Assembly (NCBI GenBank): GCA_902806175.1
Contig: CADCVQ010000063.1
Location: 1 to 64,000 of the forward strand
Direction of reading: 5' to 3'
Source of the DNA: an uncultured Solirubrobacteraceae bacterium
Lineage (GTDB): Bacteria > Actinomycetota > Thermoleophilia > Solirubrobacterales > Solirubrobacteraceae
DNA length: 64,000 nt
In this document: positions 12,498 to 48,260 of the stretch, one piece after another
Position numbering within the stretch: the first letter of the stretch is position 1
Layout: the number at the start of each line of letters is the position of its first letter
Notes under the pieces: generated by a model
What the model saw: the letters and a program-made list of their open reading frames with translations, nothing else
What the model was told of the DNA's origin: nothing
Database searches by the model: none
Position numbers and translations under genes: made by a program

Positions 12498-14405
12498 CTA
12501 CCTCCGCGGCCGCGGCCTGAAGATGTAGAGGCCGTAGTCGCGATCGCTGGCGAGCACGTACTGCCTGCCGCGCATCTTGTGAACCTCCACGCCCCAGAAG
12601 TTGTTGCCGCCCTCGTCGATGAAGGCGCCGACCTCCTGCAGCCCGTTTCTGCCGTAGCGCAGTATCCGGAACCCGCCGGCGTAGTAGCTGACGTAGGCGA
12701 GCCGGCTGCTCTGATCGGGGTCCATGGCCACCTCGTGCACCGAGAGGTCCCCGAAGCGGGTGGAATAGCGCGCGTCCTGGGACTCGGGAATGGCAAACGT
12801 GTCGATCTGCTCGATCGATCCCGTTGTCCCGGGGCGTCCCGGCACGTCGGTCCCGAACAACCGCAGATAGCCCCAGCCATCGAAGACGGCCTCGATCGTC
12901 GCCATCGCAGCCGCTGTGCCCGGGGCAGGCGTGGCCGTCGTGCACGCGGTGGTCTCGTTCACGCCCGCGACCTGCAGCAGGCGCAGGCCTGCGAGCCGGT
13001 CTGTGAACACGAACGGGATGTCGCCCTCCGCCAGCATCGTGATGAGTCCCTGGCAATCCTCGCGCATCGCGTTGAACACGATGCCGCCCGTGTAGCCCGC
13101 GGCCTCGATCGTGTCGAGCTTCTGCTGGAAGGTGCAGACGCCACGCTCGATCAGCGCCACGCCGCTGCCGGCGGGCAGCGGCTCGCAGGCGGTGCCCACG
13201 AAGGTCGGCCTGCCCGTGATGCTCGTCTCCTCGTCGATCGGCGGTGTCGCCGAGGCCGAGGCGGCGTTGAAGGTCGCGCCCTGTGCCGGACCGGACGTGA
13301 TCGTGGCGACGACGCGATAGGGGTTGAAGTCCTCGTCCGTCCCGAGCAGGAAGCGGTTGTCGGGTGAGAACTCGGACTGGTGTGCATTGCCCTCCGGCGA
13401 GATCTCCTGCCCGCGCGCAAGGCGCTGCTCGTCCAGCGCGGGGAAGTCGGACTCCGCGATCAGCGAAACCTCTCCGGGCTGCGGATCGGTGACGTCGAGC
13501 AGCACGTAGCCCCCGTCCCAGTAGGAGGCGTTCATGACGTAGCGGCGGCCGATCTTCTTGACCGTCATGTCGTGTGAGAACACCGACGTCAGGTTCTCCG
13601 GCGTCTCCTGCTGAACGGAGAACGGCGGTTCGTCGAGATCAAGCGAGTCGTTCACGAGCTGCGGGTTGCGCGGGTTGGTGATGTCCATGATGTCGAGGTC
13701 GGTGGTCTCCTCGTCATCGACGAGCACGACATAGGTGCGGCCGGTGAACTCGTTCGTCCAGGCAAACGCGCTGTGCGTCTGGTTGGCCTGGTCGTCGCCG
13801 CCGCCCCCGGGGTTGGTGTAGTCACCGGCATGCATGGCAAGCGGCTTGGGCGCACGTGCGTCGGTGACATCCCAGATGTTGATGCCGCCGCGGGTGCGCG
13901 GCGCCGTCGGCTGCGGCGCACCGGGACACGTCTCGTTGTTATGGATGAACAGGACGCCGTTGAAGTAGCGGTTCTTCATCCGCAACGTCTGTGAGCCCTC
14001 GCCCGCGTAGTTGCCGGGCGTCGTGTCCATGAACGCTTCCTGGACCTCGGACGGTGCTCGCGGCGCCGACATGTCGATCACGTGGGCCCCACCGCGCTCG
14101 CAGGTCGGATCGCGGAACGCCGTCAAGAACGCGTAGTTGCCATAGGCCGAGACGTCCGCGACGCGGCCGTCGTTGCCGGCGCCGGTCGGATTGGTGACCT
14201 CGGCCTTGCCGATCAGGTTGACGCCGTAGCGCACCGGCGGCAGATGGCCCTCGTTGCCGCCGTGCTGATCGCCGTGCACCACACCCTCGCCCTCGAACAT
14301 CTCCTTGCTCCCGGACGCGTGGTCGGGATGGTGCGCATAGGCGGGCGCGGCGAAGGCAGCCAACGCTGCAGTCGCGGCCGCCAGGAATGTATGGCGCTTA
14401 GCCAT
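12498..14405 (-). CDS. Exported LVIVD-repeat protein with PA-domain insertion (paralogue 1)
   Basis: 635 residues with a Sec signal peptide (hydrophobic Ala-rich stretch ending near AYAHH). The body reads as beta-propeller blades of the LVIVD type: VADVSAYGNYAFLTAF, GGAHVIDMSAPRAP, GINIWDVTDARAPKPL, DLDIMDITNPRNPQLV, DGGYVLLDVTDPQPG, RLAYVSYYAGGFRILRYG. Around residues 370-490 a protease-associated (PA) domain is inserted, with VALIERGVCTFQQKLDTIEA. ATG at 14405 is preceded by GGAGGG. It is about as long as the plus-strand paralogue at 29682, with the same domain order. Its ligand is unknown. It ends at a strong hairpin. Confidence 0.85.
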   Translation of the reverse strand: MAKRHTFLAAATAALAAFAAPAYAHHPDHASGSKEMFEGEGVVHGDQHGGNEGHLPPVRYGVNLIGKAEVTNPTGAGNDGRVADVSAYGNYAFLTAFRDPTCERGGAHVIDMSAPRAPSEVQEAFMDTTPGNYAGEGSQTLRMKNRYFNGVLFIHNNETCPGAPQPTAPRTRGGINIWDVTDARAPKPLAMHAGDYTNPGGGGDDQANQTHSAFAWTNEFTGRTYVVLVDDEETTDLDIMDITNPRNPQLVNDSLDLDEPPFSVQQETPENLTSVFSHDMTVKKIGRRYVMNASYWDGGYVLLDVTDPQPGEVSLIAESDFPALDEQRLARGQEISPEGNAHQSEFSPDNRFLLGTDEDFNPYRVVATITSGPAQGATFNAASASATPPIDEETSITGRPTFVGTACEPLPAGSGVALIERGVCTFQQKLDTIEAAGYTGGIVFNAMREDCQGLITMLAEGDIPFVFTDRLAGLRLLQVAGVNETTACTTATPAPGTAAAMATIEAVFDGWGYLRLFGTDVPGRPGTTGSIEQIDTFAIPESQDARYSTRFGDLSVHEVAMDPDQSSRLAYVSYYAGGFRILRYGRNGLQEVGAFIDEGGNNFWGVEVHKMRGRQYVLASDRDYGLYIFRPRPRR

Positions 14406-16411: not shown

Positions 16412-17443
16412 TCAGCATCGTGCTGGCTGATGCCACCGCTGCGTGTCGGTAGAGCCGCGTTGCCATGGGGCGTGCGGGTCACCGAAGAAGACGTCGATGC
16501 CGGCGTCGATGCGGATCTGCTTGCAGTCGCGCATCCCGGGGCCCTGGTCGCACGTCAGCGAGCGGCGCATGGCCTCGGGCAGCGTCTGGATCTTCGCCGC
16601 GAGCGCCGGCGCGACCTGCTCGGGCTTGTAGCCGCCGGGCAGCGCGACGAGCATCGCGTAGCCGGTGCTGCGTTCGACGAGCGTCGCGATCGCGGTCTGG
16701 TTGCGCTTGCCGATCAGCAGATCGCCCTCCCAGCGGCCGGGCACCGCGCGATCGACGGCCTCCGCCGGGCGCTGGCTGATGTTGATCATGTCGCGCCCCA
16801 GCATGCGGTTCTTACGCGTCCCGGAGTGCCGGCCGGGCTGACGCAGCGCGCGACCGGTGCGCAAGCAGGCCGTCAGCTCGCGGCGCAGCGCGCCCCGCGA
16901 TCGCACGTATAACGATTGGTAGATCGTCTCGGTCGACACCCACATCTCCGGGTCGTCGGGGAACTTTCGGCGCAAGCGCCCAGCGATCTGCTGCGGTGAG
17001 AAGCGCTTAAGCAGATCGTCCTGGACACGCTCGCGCAGCGCCACGTTGACCGCCAGCTTGCCGGCTTGGGACCGCTCGCGCGGTCATAGGCCGCGCGTGC
17101 GCGGCCGTCGCGCGGTAACGCCCATCGCGATCGGCGTTGCGCTGCAGCTCGCGCGACACCGTCGACAGCGCGCGCCCCAGGCGTCGCGCGATCGCGCGGA
17201 TCGTCTCGCCGCCCGCGATGCCCCAAGGCGATCTCCTCACGCTCAGCGAACGTCAAACAGCGCCCCTTTGAGATCGCGGCCGCGACGAGGACGAGCACCG
17301 CCGCACGCCCTGACCCATCGCGAGCCCTGCTTGCGATACGTGCCGATCTGCTCGGCCGCGCCGCTGATGAACTCGCCGCGCTGCAACGCAGCCCAGAACA
17401 CCTGAAGCGTTTCGGTGTCCATCCGACTGGTGAACTGACTCAT
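16412..17443 (-). pseudogene. IS30-family transposase, frameshifted and 3'-truncated
   Basis: The product can be rebuilt across several frames. MSQFTSRMDTETLQVFWAAL starts at 17443. GRCLTFAEREEIALG and GGETIRAIARRLGRALSTV (frame change near 17230) form the IS30 N-terminal HTH. From 17044 a long frame gives VALRERVQDDLLKRFSPQQI, then PGRWEGDLLIGK, the DDE Asp block. SLTCDQGPGM is the second Asp. The frame breaks at DPHAPWQRGS, where the family expects the catalytic Glu in GxxExxNGLLR, so the last part is lost. At least two frameshifts plus truncation make it inactive. Confidence 0.85.
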
Positions 17444-21160: not shown

Positions 21161-22204
21161 GTGAAAACCGTCTTCCAGCGCCGGCGCTCGCCAACGCTCC
21201 TCCTCACCGTCGGGCTGCTCGCCACGCTCGCTCTGACGAGTCCGGCCGAGGCCGCCTTCCCCGGCGAGAACGGCAAGATCGCGTTCGAAAGCAACCGCAG
21301 CGGCAATTTCGAGATCTACACGGTGAACCCTGACGGCTCGGGTCTCACCAGGCTGACGAACCATCCGGCCATCGACGGCGACGCGACCTTCTCGCCGGAC
21401 GGGCAGCGGATCGCGTTCATAAGCACCCGCGACGGCAACCCCGAGGTCTATCTGATGGCGGCCGACGGCTCGGGGCAGACCCGCCTGACGAACAGCCCGG
21501 GCTTCGAAGGCCATGTCACCTTCTCGCCCGACGGCCAGCGGATCGCCTTTACAAGTGACCGCGACGGCAACTACGAGATCTACGTGATGGCGATCGAGGG
21601 CTCGGGGCAGACCCGCCTGACGAACAACACCGCCCCGGACGTCCAGGCCACGTTCGCGCCCGACGGGCGGATCGTCTTCCGAAGCGACCGGGGCGGCAAC
21701 GCCGACATCTACGTGATGGCGCCCGACGGCTCGGGGCAGACCCGCCTGACGAACAACCCTCTCCCGGACGTCCAGCCGACCGTCTCGCCGGACGGGCAGC
21801 GGATAGCCTTCATAAGTCTCCGTGACCGCAACCCCGAGATCTACGTGATGGCGGCCGACGGCTCGGAGCAGACCCGCCTAACTCACAGTCCGGCCTTCGA
21901 AGGCGCTCCGGCTTTCTCGCCCGACGGCCAGCAGATCGCCTTCCATAGCAACCGCGATGGCGCCTCCGAGGTCTACGTGATGGCGGCTGACGGCTCGGGC
22001 CTCAGAAACCTGACGAATAACCCGGCCACCGACTCGGACCCCGACTGGCAACCCCTGCCTCGCCCGCTGGCTGCTTCCCCGCCGAGCAAAGGGGCGTGCA
22101 AGAACGGGGGCTGGGAGGAACTCGGATTCCGTAACCAGGGCCAGTGCGTCAAGGCGGCAAACGAGGCCGCTGCTCGGCGCGGCCGCGGTCGCGGGGGTGG
22201 TTGA
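21161..22204 (+). CDS. Exported PD40/TolB-like beta-propeller protein
   Basis: The GTG at 21161, with GGAGG seven bases upstream, gives KTVFQRRRSPTLLLTVGLLA as a signal peptide ending at SPAEAA. The open frame runs further upstream but is unsupported there. The mature protein starts FPGENGKIAFESNRSGNFEI, followed by about seven PD40 repeats of the form FSPDGQRIAFxSxRDGNxEIYVMAADGSGQTRLTN. The end is GACKNGGWEELGFRNQGQCV, a short Cys-containing tail often seen on actinobacterial exported proteins. It probably binds a ligand or envelope component outside the membrane; the ligand is unknown. Confidence 0.85.
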   Translation: MKTVFQRRRSPTLLLTVGLLATLALTSPAEAAFPGENGKIAFESNRSGNFEIYTVNPDGSGLTRLTNHPAIDGDATFSPDGQRIAFISTRDGNPEVYLMAADGSGQTRLTNSPGFEGHVTFSPDGQRIAFTSDRDGNYEIYVMAIEGSGQTRLTNNTAPDVQATFAPDGRIVFRSDRGGNADIYVMAPDGSGQTRLTNNPLPDVQPTVSPDGQRIAFISLRDRNPEIYVMAADGSEQTRLTHSPAFEGAPAFSPDGQQIAFHSNRDGASEVYVMAADGSGLRNLTNNPATDSDPDWQPLPRPLAASPPSKGACKNGGWEELGFRNQGQCVKAANEAAARRGRGRGGG

Positions 22205-26226: not shown

Positions 26227-26694
26227 ATGTTCAGGCCCTATGGACTGGCCGCGGCCTGCGCCACGATCGTGCTCGCGGCACCTTCGGCGGCGCTGGCAGC
26301 GGCGGGTGACTCGGTCACCGGAGGCGGCATCAGCGCGGTGGACACACGGTTCGGATTCAATGCTCACAGCAACGCGAACGGCGGCGAGCCGGGCGGATAC
26401 GCGGTGTTCAAGACCGTCAACGGCACAAGCGCGGCTCGTAAAGGCGAGGTCACGTGCCTGCGGGTGTCTGGCAACATGGCGGTGATCGGAATCCAGGACT
26501 ACACAACGGACGGCACGCTCGTGTACCGGCAGTTCTTCATCCGCGACAACGGCGATCCCGTCGGCGGCGTAGCGGTCGACGAACTGCGCGAGATCGGATC
26601 GGGCTCGGCGACGCCGTTGCCCTGTGCCGATCCCGCGGAGCAAGGCAGCGGGCTCATCCTGCAGCAGGGCAACATCGTCATTCGCGACGCGTAG
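26227..26694 (+). CDS. Small secreted protein, first of the co-promoted pair
   Basis: 155 residues with a Sec signal peptide (GLAAACATIVLAAPSAALAAA). The mature part begins GDSVTGGGISAVDTRFGFNA, then HSNANGGEPGGYAVFKT, GEVTCLRVSGNMAVIG and a FFIRDNGDPVGGVAVDEL strand. Two Cys could form a disulfide. This VTGGG-FGFNAHS pattern recurs in secreted actinobacterial proteins, but I know no assigned function. The ribosome site AAAGGAG is good. It is followed by a strong hairpin terminator, so it is probably its own transcript. Confidence 0.75.
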   Translation: MFRPYGLAAACATIVLAAPSAALAAAGDSVTGGGISAVDTRFGFNAHSNANGGEPGGYAVFKTVNGTSAARKGEVTCLRVSGNMAVIGIQDYTTDGTLVYRQFFIRDNGDPVGGVAVDELREIGSGSATPLPCADPAEQGSGLILQQGNIVIRDA

Positions 26695-26955: not shown

Positions 26956-27010
26956 ACCGTTCCCGTCGCCGTCGTCCGGCGACGACTCAGCTCCGGTCTG
27001 GAGGATCCTC

Positions 27011-27541
27011 ATGAAGAGACGCCGCACGCGCCCACTGGCGCTCCTCGTTGTCGCGATCACGCTCGCGGGTGGTGCTCTTACGGCTTCGAGTATGGGCGCG
27101 AATGACCCGGACGTCGCACTTCAGGCGACCCGCTACATGGTCAGCGTCGACGGCTACGAGGTAGGGTCGTTCAACGACCTTAGCGCGATCACCGTTGAGG
27201 TGACGCCCAATGCCAACCGGTCCGTCAGCCTCGATGGATTGATCACCGGGAAGCTCACCGCGAGCGTGAGGCCTCCCATCGTCACGCTCAAGCGGGGGAT
27301 GAGTGGTGGTACCGAGCTTTGGAATTGGTATGAGCTGGTCCAGAGAGGCGACCTGAGGAATGCTCGCAAGACCGTTTTGCTGAGCGTCCGCAACGCGACG
27401 AACGGGACGGTCGCGCAATACAGGCTCGTCAACGCGTGGCCGGTACGACTAAACGTCAGCGGCGTCAACGGCGCGACCGCCGACACGCTCTATGAGACGC
27501 TGACGCTGACCGCGGACACGATCGAGCGCGTGAGGCCCTAG
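27011..27541 (+). CDS. Exported phage tail tube (gp19-like) protein
   Basis: 176 residues. The N-terminus KRRRTRPLALLVVAITLAGG, ending near SSMGA, is a signal peptide with a twin-Arg-like start. The rest follows the T4 gp19/contractile tail tube family: ATRYMVSVDGYEVGSFNDLS, then VTLKRGMSGGTELWNWYELV at residues 91-110, AQYRLVNAWPVRL at 135-147 and a closing ETLTLTADTIERV strand. In phages and contractile injection systems this fold stacks as hexameric rings. A signal peptide is unusual for it. No sheath, baseplate or ATPase gene is nearby. GGAGG seven bases upstream supports the ATG. It shares its promoter type with the preceding secreted gene. Confidence 0.75.
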   Translation: MKRRRTRPLALLVVAITLAGGALTASSMGANDPDVALQATRYMVSVDGYEVGSFNDLSAITVEVTPNANRSVSLDGLITGKLTASVRPPIVTLKRGMSGGTELWNWYELVQRGDLRNARKTVLLSVRNATNGTVAQYRLVNAWPVRLNVSGVNGATADTLYETLTLTADTIERVRP

Positions 27542-27554
27542 CGCTGTGCGGACG

Positions 27555-27585
27555 CTCCCGGCTCGGACGCTCGCCGGGCCGGGAG
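27555..27585 (+). terminator. Probable terminator after the tail-tube-like gene
   Basis: Arms CTCCCGGC and GCCGGGAG, 8 bp each, with a GC-rich 15-base loop, just past the stop codon. No U-run follows. Confidence 0.5.
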
Positions 27586-27635
27586 ACCGCGAACGGATCA
27601 GCGCCGGCGGGCAGATCTAACTCCCGAGCCGATGC

Positions 27636-29681: not shown

Positions 29682-31595
29682 ATGAGGAGCATGCGTGTAG
29701 CGTGCGCTTGTGCCGTCGTCGCCGCATCTGCGGTGGGTGCGTCGATTGCGGGCGCTCATCCCGGCCAGCAGCATGGGCTGGATACGGGGCATCTGGCGGG
29801 CAACGGGGCGTGGGGTGAGCTCGAGCTCGTCTCGAAGCTTCGCCTGACGGATGAGCCCGAGCAGGTCGCCGATGTCGCGGTCGACCCGAAGGGCGAGTAT
29901 GCCTATCTGGCGCATTGGGGCGAGGAGGATTGCGCCGCCAACGCGGAGACCGGTGGCGTCAACGATCCTGATGCCGGCGCGTGGGTGGTCGACATCCGCG
30001 ACCCGTCGCAGCCCAAGAAGGTTTCGTTCATCGCGCATTCCCAGGACAGCCGTCCGGGTGAGGGTATGCATGTGCTGCACGTCTCGACGAGGTCCTTCAA
30101 CGGCAACATGCTCGCGATGAACAACGAGCAGTGCGGCAAGAACGGCAGGGGCGGCATCTCGCTGTACGACGTCAGCAATCCCGCAAAGCCGACGAAGCTG
30201 TCTGAGCACTTCGGCGATCGCGGTCAAACCGACACCAACGACACCCACAGCGCCTTTGTCTGGGATGCCGGCGAGAAGGCTTACGCGGTGATGACCGACA
30301 ACTTCGAGTCCACCGACGTCGACATCCTCGACATCACCAACCCCAAGCGTCCGCGCCTGATCAGCGAGATGGACGTCAACGCGCTGACTCGCGCGCTCGG
30401 TGACCGCGTCAGCCAGTCAGACATCGGACTGGGCGACTCGTCGCTGCACGACATGATCGTCAAGAACGTGCCGCGCTCCAGCGTCGGACTAGCCGGGCAA
30501 GGCAACGTCTGGGTGCTGCTGCTGTCTTACTGGGACGGCGGCTACGTGCTTTTCAACATCGACAATCCCGCGAACCCCGTCTACATCGACGACACCGATT
30601 ACGACCAGTTCGACCCGCAGATGCTCGCCGAAGGCAAGTCGGTCTTCCCCGAAGGCAATGGCCATCAGGCGGAGTTCACGGCCGACAACCGGTTCTTCAT
30701 CGGCACCGACGAGGACTTCTCGCCGTATGGCGCGCAGTTCCAGATCACTTCAGGACTGAACGCGGGCACCTATCCGGCGGGTCACTTCGGCTGGACGAAG
30801 ATCATCCCGCCAGGAACCGAGGTCACGGGTGAGACGGTGTTCGGTGGCTTTGGCTGCCCCGACGATCGCGCGTCGATCCCCTCGGCCGCGGCGACCGGCA
30901 AGGACGTGATCGTCTTTGAGCGCGGCCCAGTTGAGCACCCAGCCGCGGGCAGCGCCGCGTGCTTTTTCTCTGAGAAGGTCGAGAGCGCGCAGCTCGCGGG
31001 CTATGACCTCGTGCTGATCGCCAACCACCATTCCGGATCAGACGGCGGGTTTGAGGGCGACGCGCAGTTCTGCGGCGGCCAGGGCCACGCGTTTACGAAC
31101 ACGATCCCGGCGATCTGCATCGGCCACCGCGCGATGCACCTGCTGTTCAACAAGGCGGCGTCCTACGACTACAGTGCCACGGGATCGGAGCCCGCGATCG
31201 GCGCCATCGGCGAGAGCATGAAGGTCTCGACGACGTTTGACGGATGGGGTTACGTGCACCTGTTTGACTCCGTCACCCGCGCGAACCTCGGGACGTACGC
31301 GATCCCCGAAGCCCACAAGGAGAGCCACGCCCAGGGCTACGGCGACCTCACCGTCCACGAGGTCGCGACCGATCCGGTCGACTCAGAACGCGCGTACCTG
31401 TCGTACTACTCAGGCGGGATGCGAGTCCTCGACGTCAGCCAAAACGGCCTGGCGGAAGTCGGCGGCTACCTCGCCGAGAACGGCAGCAACTTCTGGGGTG
31501 TAGAGGCCTACCGCAGAGACGGCCACACCTACGTCCTGGGCAGCGACCGCGACTACGGGCTGTTTGTGTTTCGCAACCACAAGGGCGGTCACTGA
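29682..31595 (+). CDS. Exported LVIVD-repeat protein with PA-domain insertion (paralogue 2)
   Basis: The ATG at 29682 has GGAGGG upstream and starts RSMRVACACAVVAASAVGAS, a signal peptide ending at AGAHP. The 637-residue product has propeller blades such as VADVAVDPKGEYAYLAHWG, GAWVVDIRDPSQPKKVSFI, GISLYDVSNPAKPTKL, DVDILDITNPKRPRL, GGYVLFNIDNPANPVYI and AYLSYYSGGMRVLDVSQNG. A PA domain lies in the middle (KDVIVFERGPVEHPAAGSAA through QLAGYDLVLIANHHSG). It shares domain order and ends (NFWGVEAYRRDGHTYVLGSD) with the minus-strand paralogue at 12498. A GC hairpin terminates it. Confidence 0.87.
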   Translation: MRSMRVACACAVVAASAVGASIAGAHPGQQHGLDTGHLAGNGAWGELELVSKLRLTDEPEQVADVAVDPKGEYAYLAHWGEEDCAANAETGGVNDPDAGAWVVDIRDPSQPKKVSFIAHSQDSRPGEGMHVLHVSTRSFNGNMLAMNNEQCGKNGRGGISLYDVSNPAKPTKLSEHFGDRGQTDTNDTHSAFVWDAGEKAYAVMTDNFESTDVDILDITNPKRPRLISEMDVNALTRALGDRVSQSDIGLGDSSLHDMIVKNVPRSSVGLAGQGNVWVLLLSYWDGGYVLFNIDNPANPVYIDDTDYDQFDPQMLAEGKSVFPEGNGHQAEFTADNRFFIGTDEDFSPYGAQFQITSGLNAGTYPAGHFGWTKIIPPGTEVTGETVFGGFGCPDDRASIPSAAATGKDVIVFERGPVEHPAAGSAACFFSEKVESAQLAGYDLVLIANHHSGSDGGFEGDAQFCGGQGHAFTNTIPAICIGHRAMHLLFNKAASYDYSATGSEPAIGAIGESMKVSTTFDGWGYVHLFDSVTRANLGTYAIPEAHKESHAQGYGDLTVHEVATDPVDSERAYLSYYSGGMRVLDVSQNGLAEVGGYLAENGSNFWGVEAYRRDGHTYVLGSDRDYGLFVFRNHKGGH

Positions 31596-47549: not shown

Positions 47550-48260
47550 CGCGGCGTGATCGGCTTCGAACTCGACCGGGGAGCGCATCCCCCAGCGTCG
47601 AACGCAGCCGAACCGGGTTACAGAACCCTTCGATGTACTCGAAGATCGCCGAGCGCAGCTCGGCGCGGGTTGCCCATCCTCACCTTGGGGCGCCGTGCAG
47701 CAGGCGCTCCTTGGTCAGCGTCGCGAAGAACGTCGCGGCGGCGGCGTTGTCGTAGCAGGTTCCGACGGCGCCCATCGACTGCGCGATCCCCGCGTCATGG
47801 CCGGCCTGGCCCGACGCCAGGCTGATGTACTGCCCGCCGTGATCGGAATGGTGGATCGTCCCCTTCGGCGGCCGGCGCGCCGCGACCGCCATCCGTAGCG
47901 CGTCGACGACGAGCTCGGCGCGCATGTGCACGGCCATGCCCCAGCCGACGATCCGGCGGCTGAACAGATCCTGCACGGCGGCCGGGTACAGCCAGCCCTC
48001 CGCGGTCTTGATCTGCTTGATGTCCGCACACCACGCGCGTCGGGCGCCTCGGGGCGAACGTCGCGGCCGACCAGGTCACTGCACGGCTCCACGCCGTCCA
48101 CGCGCACCGGCGGCCCTTGCGACGGCGCTTGAATGCGCCCTGAAGGCCCGGGGCGCGGGATCGAACGGCCACGTCGCACCAGTCCAGCGCCTCCCACCGG
48201 AACTGCTCCGGGCAGGCAGGCCTCGTCTTCGGCAGCGGTGTCCCATCCTTTCACGGCGCT
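47550..48260 (-). pseudogene. IS3-family transposase (OrfB) remnant
   Basis: Frames on the minus strand give AFKRRRKGRRC and VDGVEPCSDLVGRDVRPEAP, then MQDLFSRRIVGWGMAVHMRA and HHSDHGGQYISLASGQAGHD, the DDE core of IS3 OrfB. CYDNAAAATFFATLTKERLL follows, where the catalytic Glu is replaced (A-T where the family has ExFF). Later RSPVEFEADHA lies in another frame. OrfA is absent. At least two frameshifts make it inactive. Confidence 0.78.

What the first reader, a model, noticed from the sequence alone, without database searches (positions are those of the whole stretch)
27011..27541. Secreted tail-tube (gp19-like) protein without any tail gene cluster
The sequence shows a signal peptide followed by the gp19 tail-tube pattern (VTLKRG, ELWNWY, NAWPVRL, ETLTL in order). 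Known gp19-fold proteins belong to contractile tails, injection systems or encapsulated tubes and are cytoplasmic. Here the fold is apparently exported, has its own promoter and terminator, and no sheath, spike, baseplate or ATPase gene occurs in the 64 kb. It could form extracellular tubes or envelope rings, a use I do not know to be described.
Basis: partly seen in the sequence, partly recalled or inferred. Interest (0 to 1): 0.8.

Follow-up and report, generated by a model that had tools for sequence, protein, structure and literature searches.

The report
Exported stand-alone injection-tube protein
This bacterial gene encodes a relative of the inner-tube protein of phage-tail-like injection machines that carries a predicted export signal and stands alone; similar exported versions occur in other bacteria, three of which show no sign of such a machine, so the tube fold seems to have been reused outside the cell membrane for an unknown job.

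Summary
ORF 27011-27541 (176 aa) has a strong ribosome site, a Sec-type N-terminus (KRRR, then LALLVVAITLAGGALTA) and a gp19 domain (Pfam E 7e-18). Its predicted fold matches contractile-injection-system (CIS) tube proteins best (Z 15.4). No other tail gene lies in the window, but the genome encodes a CIS with two ordinary gp19 tubes on other contigs. By tree, the domain descends from the main-tube family of actinobacterial CIS. Of 170 gp19 frames collected, only five have an N-terminal signal: this one and four from one distant actinobacterial genus, all outside CIS clusters. In three of those four genomes the exported protein is the only gp19 match and no sheath gene was found. There it overlaps by 4 bp a gene for an exported collagen-like protein, and two cysteines rare or absent in cytoplasmic relatives are fixed. 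So exported gp19 proteins are a small, recurrent, apparently undescribed set. The likely role is an envelope or extracellular structural protein, perhaps a six-fold ring; assembly and function are untested.

The parts
27000..27004 (+). Shine-Dalgarno GGAGG, 6 nt before the ATG
   Evidence: sequence
27011..27541 (+). Whole CDS, exported gp19-like protein, 176 aa
   Evidence: PF06841 E 6.9e-18
27011..27091 (+). Predicted Sec signal peptide or N-in/C-out signal anchor, aa 1-27 (n-region MKRRRTRP, h-region LALLVVAITLAGGALTA, c-region SS); the exact cleavage site is unsure
   Evidence: sequence; best N-terminal hydropathy of 170 gp19 frames. No dedicated signal-peptide predictor was available
27092..27094 (+). 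Internal ATG (M28) that aligns with the start of ordinary CIS tubes; no SD, so probably not used
27125..27523 (+). gp19 tube-fold domain, aa 39-171
   Evidence: Pfam; AF2 model pLDDT 86, pTM 0.73; Foldseek E 9e-10 and Z 15.4 to an S. coelicolor CIS tube chain
27555..27585 (+). GC-rich stem-loop after the stop, no T run; possible transcript end
   Evidence: strand folding -42.5 kcal/mol for 27539-27610, z -2.9; not called a terminator

Best explanation
The gene is a stand-alone descendant of the main inner-tube gene of an actinobacterial contractile injection system that has gained a Sec export signal. The protein leaves the cytoplasm (inferred from the signal), folds outside into the gp19 beta-barrel (predicted fold), and works there as a structural or binding protein of the envelope or extracellular matrix rather than inside a contractile machine. 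Because gp19 and Hcp subunits readily form six-fold rings but usually need a baseplate or tip to grow into tubes, a ring or short stack is more likely than long tubes; this step is inferred only. Shown: domain, predicted fold, signal-like N-terminus, isolation, ancestry, recurrence. Inferred: secretion, assembly, function.
For: gp19 domain and fold. SD and start codon placed to include the signal. Only 5 of 170 gp19 frames have such an N-terminus, and all five lie outside CIS clusters. The tree puts the window domain in a 99/91 clade with actinobacterial main tubes, whose genes sit in CIS clusters in 16 of 17 named loci. A second set in one genus (L130, L131, L133, L134) has AxA-type signal peptides; three of its four genomes, one a single contig, have this as their only gp19 match and no sheath match, while the fourth has a CIS that the same searches detect. 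There the gene overlaps by 4 bp an exported collagen-like gene. Two cysteines are fixed in 4/4 at columns with 5/38 and 0/38 in relatives. High-confidence fold for L134 (pLDDT 95.5; Z 14.4). The window protein keeps 7 of 10 columns conserved at 90% or more, against 16 of 81 poorly conserved columns, suggesting selection on the fold.
Against: Export rests on sequence; the cleavage-site region (TASSMGAN) is only moderately canonical, so it may be a membrane anchor. No close orthologue of the window gene is known, so its conservation cannot be tested directly. Ring or tube formation is untested. dN/dS in the second set is about 0.6 to 1.2 outside the signal and distorted by GC bias, so strong purifying selection is not shown. 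The window genome has its own CIS, so interplay with it is not excluded.
Confidence: 0.6

Rival explanations
1. It is a cytoplasmic spare tube protein of the genome's CIS: translation starts at M28 (MGANDPDV, like MPANDKEA of other tubes), or the hydrophobic stretch is incidental.
For: M28 aligns with the start of ordinary tubes; the genome has a CIS.
Against: No SD at M28, strong SD at 27011; the CIS has its own two tubes, and its main tube L001 is in a different clade; a second lineage shows the same signal-plus-gp19 layout in genomes without a detected sheath.
Confidence: 0.12
2. It is membrane-anchored (uncleaved signal anchor), displaying the gp19 barrel on the outer face of the membrane, for example as a docking site or cap for CIS or other complexes.
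For: 17-residue hydrophobic stretch and five basic residues before it; weak cleavage motif.
Against: A small-residue c-region (ASS) allows cleavage; relatives in the second set have clear SVA-type cleavage motifs.
Confidence: 0.18
3. It is a decaying remnant of a lost CIS cluster that picked up an upstream hydrophobic stretch by chance.
For: Long branch (1.3 changes per column); lies in a lower-GC3 accessory stretch with transposase-like ORFs; no match of this kind in sister genomes.
Against: Intact frame, good SD, positive codon score, most conserved core residues kept, confident barrel model, and a second case in another genus.
Confidence: 0.1

Closest known systems
Actinobacterial CIS main inner-tube protein (Cis1/Pvc1/Afp1 type, PF06841, TIGR02241), e.g. 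S. coelicolor CIS tube (PDB 9gts, 8bl4)
   Same: Homologous domain, same predicted fold (Z 15.4, 144 residues), nested in this clade by tree.
   Different: Ordinary tubes start at the domain, lack a signal, and lie next to the sheath gene; this one has a signal and stands alone. In S. coelicolor the CIS stays in the cytoplasm (PMC10066040).
Hcp, tube protein of type VI secretion
   Same: Same fold (best Hcp row Z 13.1), and Hcp also ends up outside the cell.
   Different: Hcp leaves through the T6SS, not by a signal peptide (established knowledge; PMC10066040 contrasts this); no Hcp Pfam match.
gp19-domain protein abundant in the Ca. Accumulibacter granule proteome (PMC12019908)
   Same: A gp19-domain protein found in an extracellular or granule proteome study.
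   Different: Discussed by its authors as a subunit of a tubular structure or phage tail; no signal peptide or stand-alone gene is stated for it in the passages read.

Membership tests
gp19/CIS-tube protein family (PF06841) | Sequence match to the family profile | tested here: met
   65.2 bits against cut-off 28.2; TIGR02241 62.8 against 62.4
gp19/CIS-tube protein family (PF06841) | gp19/Hcp beta-barrel fold | tested here: met
   AF2 pLDDT 86; Foldseek E 9e-10, Z 15.4 to a CIS tube
Inner tube component of a CIS or contractile tail | Encoded in a cluster with sheath, spike and baseplate genes | tested here: not met
   No such gene in the window; the genome's CIS lies on contigs C66 and C2 with its own tubes
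Inner tube component of a CIS or contractile tail | Cytoplasmic subunit without export signal | tested here: not met
   Signal-like N-terminus in frame behind a strong SD; 165 of 170 gp19 frames lack one
Inner tube component of a CIS or contractile tail | Hexameric rings stacking into a tube | not testable with these tools
   No multimer prediction or experiment available
Sec-exported protein | n-, h- and c-region of a signal peptide | tested here: met
   MKRRRTRP / LALLVVAITLAGGALTA / SS; hydropathy 2.51; by composition only, no dedicated predictor
Sec-exported protein | Cleavage and presence outside the cell | not testable with these tools
   Needs proteomics or a reporter fusion
Phage tail tube | Relatives in phage genomes | tested here: inconclusive
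   No hit in 50,697 phage records or in viral contigs; PHROG tail-tube match only E 0.02
T6SS Hcp | Match to the Hcp profile | tested here: not met
   No Hcp family among Pfam matches up to E 1

The most novel reading that the evidence does not exclude
Actinobacteria have turned the injection-tube fold into a Sec-exported protein that assembles into rings or short tubes on the cell surface or outside it, independent of any contractile machine, in one genus together with a collagen-like partner: a new class of envelope appendage.
Probability: 0.3. Interest if true: 0.85.

Novelty: new variant of a known kind. Interest (0 to 1): 0.62.

Why it matters
Tube proteins of tails, T6SS and CIS are made in the cytoplasm and known only as parts of injection machines or virions. 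A Sec-exported, machine-free version, recurrent and in three genomes the only gp19 protein found, would show that this widespread fold can be reused outside the membrane, and it names candidate proteins in which ring or tube formation can be tested directly.

Tried and rejected
Prophage or phage origin: no relatives in phage records or viral contigs. Local tail cluster: tblastn of 74 CIS-cluster proteins found only the gp19 gene, apart from one marginal match (E 0.009) of a PASTA/PD40 protein at 21728-22009. Collagen-like partner as in the second set: none in the window. Single origin of the exported forms: neither shown nor rejected (sister by tree only at 93/54; p-AU 0.49 for one clade). A direct single-protein scan of genome contigs found nothing, and alignment A3 had no stretch conserved enough to scan with. 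Literature searches for exported or orphan gp19/tail-tube proteins found none in the open-access library, which does not prove absence. The taxon name of the second genus could not be obtained. Outside Actinomycetota only plasmid, phage and viral records and two genome-contig scans were searched.

Full report
What is there. The ORF at 27011-27541 encodes 176 aa: MKRRRTRPLALLVVAITLAGGALTASSMGANDPDVALQATRYMVSVDGYEV.... A GGAGG at 27000-27004 stands 6 nt before the ATG; no start codon lies further upstream in the open frame, and the next in-frame ATG (M28, 27092), which aligns with the start of ordinary tube proteins, has no SD. Codon usage favours this frame over the antisense frames. Pfam gives Phage_T4_gp19 over aa 39-171 with E 6.9e-18, and NCBIfam TIGR02241 just passes its cut-off. 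By sequence the closest solved structures are CIS-type tube proteins (best E 2e-7).

Fold. AlphaFold2 on residues 28-176, with 53 homologues, gives mean pLDDT 86 and pTM 0.73. Foldseek's best match is a tube chain of the S. coelicolor CIS (9gts_1a, E 9e-10, TM 0.76), followed by PVC, AFP, Algoriphagus and Anabaena CIS chains.

Surroundings. The window holds no other tail gene: 74 proteins from CIS clusters, searched by tblastn, find the gp19 gene and otherwise only one marginal match (E 0.009) of a PASTA/PD40 protein. The gene lies 316 nt after a small exported protein (26227-26694) and about 630 nt before the next called gene, so it is probably transcribed alone. It sits in a stretch (about 11.7-47.3 kb) with lower GC3 than the flanks and transposase-like ORFs. 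No sigma-70-type promoter was matched; a GC-rich hairpin without T run follows the stop. The same genome has a CIS on contigs C66 and C2: sheath, Pvc16-like protein, AAA ATPase, baseplate J, gp25, VgrG-related spike and CIS_tube/LysM protein, with two gp19 proteins of its own.

Relatives. Searches of 232 genomes of the order, 399 of the class, 396 of the phylum and 395 of another class of the phylum found many gp19 proteins; among those fetched from the order and class none besides the window protein has a signal. A sister genome (G070) has a 92% identical copy of the gene at 29682 but no gp19 match, so the gene looks accessory. The closest relative is a stand-alone gp19 protein without signal in a Sporichthyaceae MAG (L086 = L113, 36% identity, E 5e-31). 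Its family is the main tube of actinobacterial CIS: in 16 of 17 named loci (Kutzneria, Actinokineospora, Streptomyces and others) the gene lies in a CIS cluster, as a rule right after the sheath gene. A maximum-likelihood tree puts the window domain inside a 99/91 clade with these tubes, apart from the genome's own CIS tubes.

A second set of exported gp19 proteins. In one other actinobacterial genus (code g373) four genomes carry a gp19 protein with a clear signal peptide (for example MRKRTPVAWAAVAAAAATVLSTSTPSVAHS...): L130, L131, L133, L134 (Pfam E about 1e-14 for the two tested). In all four it is followed, with a 4-bp overlap, by a gene for a collagen-like protein with a hydrophobic N-terminus. 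A same-family search found the gp19 gene in 4 of 22 genomes, 63-77% identical. In three of the four genomes, one of them a single contig at 99% completeness, it is the only gp19 match and no sheath is matched; the fourth genome has a CIS that the same searches do find. The four proteins' domains have exactly two cysteines, at columns where 38 relatives without signal have 5/38 and 0/38 cysteine, consistent with a disulfide outside the cytoplasm. The L134 model is very confident (pLDDT 95.5) and matches CIS tubes (Z 14.4).

Control. Over 170 distinct gp19 frames in all fetched loci, the strongest uncharged 15-mer before the domain has hydropathy 2.51 in the window protein and 1.89-2.23 in the second set; the next is 1.58, and the rest are lower. 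Those five are also outside any CIS cluster. Whether the two exported sets share one origin is open (p-AU 0.49).

How it may work. Shown: domain, predicted fold, signal-like N-terminus, isolation, ancestry, recurrence in genomes without a detected sheath. Inferred: export by Sec, folding outside, and a structural or binding role there. gp19 and Hcp subunits form six-fold rings, and Hcp needs the tip complex to polymerise (review PMC8718954), so a ring or short stack is likelier than long tubes. Nothing here tests assembly.

Known or new. S. coelicolor CIS are cytoplasmic and not released (PMC10066040). A granule proteome reports an abundant gp19-domain protein (PMC12019908), but the passages read give no signal peptide for it. 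I found no paper describing signal-bearing, stand-alone gp19 proteins in the open-access library searched. I therefore file it as a member of the gp19 sequence family, not as a CIS component, and as a new variant of a known kind.

Noticed in passing
L130:3884-4339; L131:3750-4166; L133:3059-3493 (-); L134:2817-3263 (-): Collagen-like protein with hydrophobic N-terminus whose start overlaps the exported gp19 gene by 4 bp in all four genomes; shared motif HACVSRG...SWNRQGP before the collagen-like repeats.
   Followed up: partly
L136:3322-3735 (G1096): Another stand-alone gp19 protein without signal, in a genome with no sheath match and no other gp19 match; its neighbours are a large helicase-like gene and a gene for an exported protein.
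   Followed up: partly
window 11711-47316: Stretch with GC3 mostly about 0.74-0.89 between flanks mostly at 0.92 or more, with transposase-like ORFs near 16412-17044 and 47680-47976; looks like an accessory region.
   Followed up: no
window 12498-14405 and 29682-31595: Two paralogous exported proteins (41% identical) with weak choice-of-anchor/LVIVD matches; further copies elsewhere in the genome and in sister genomes.
   Followed up: no
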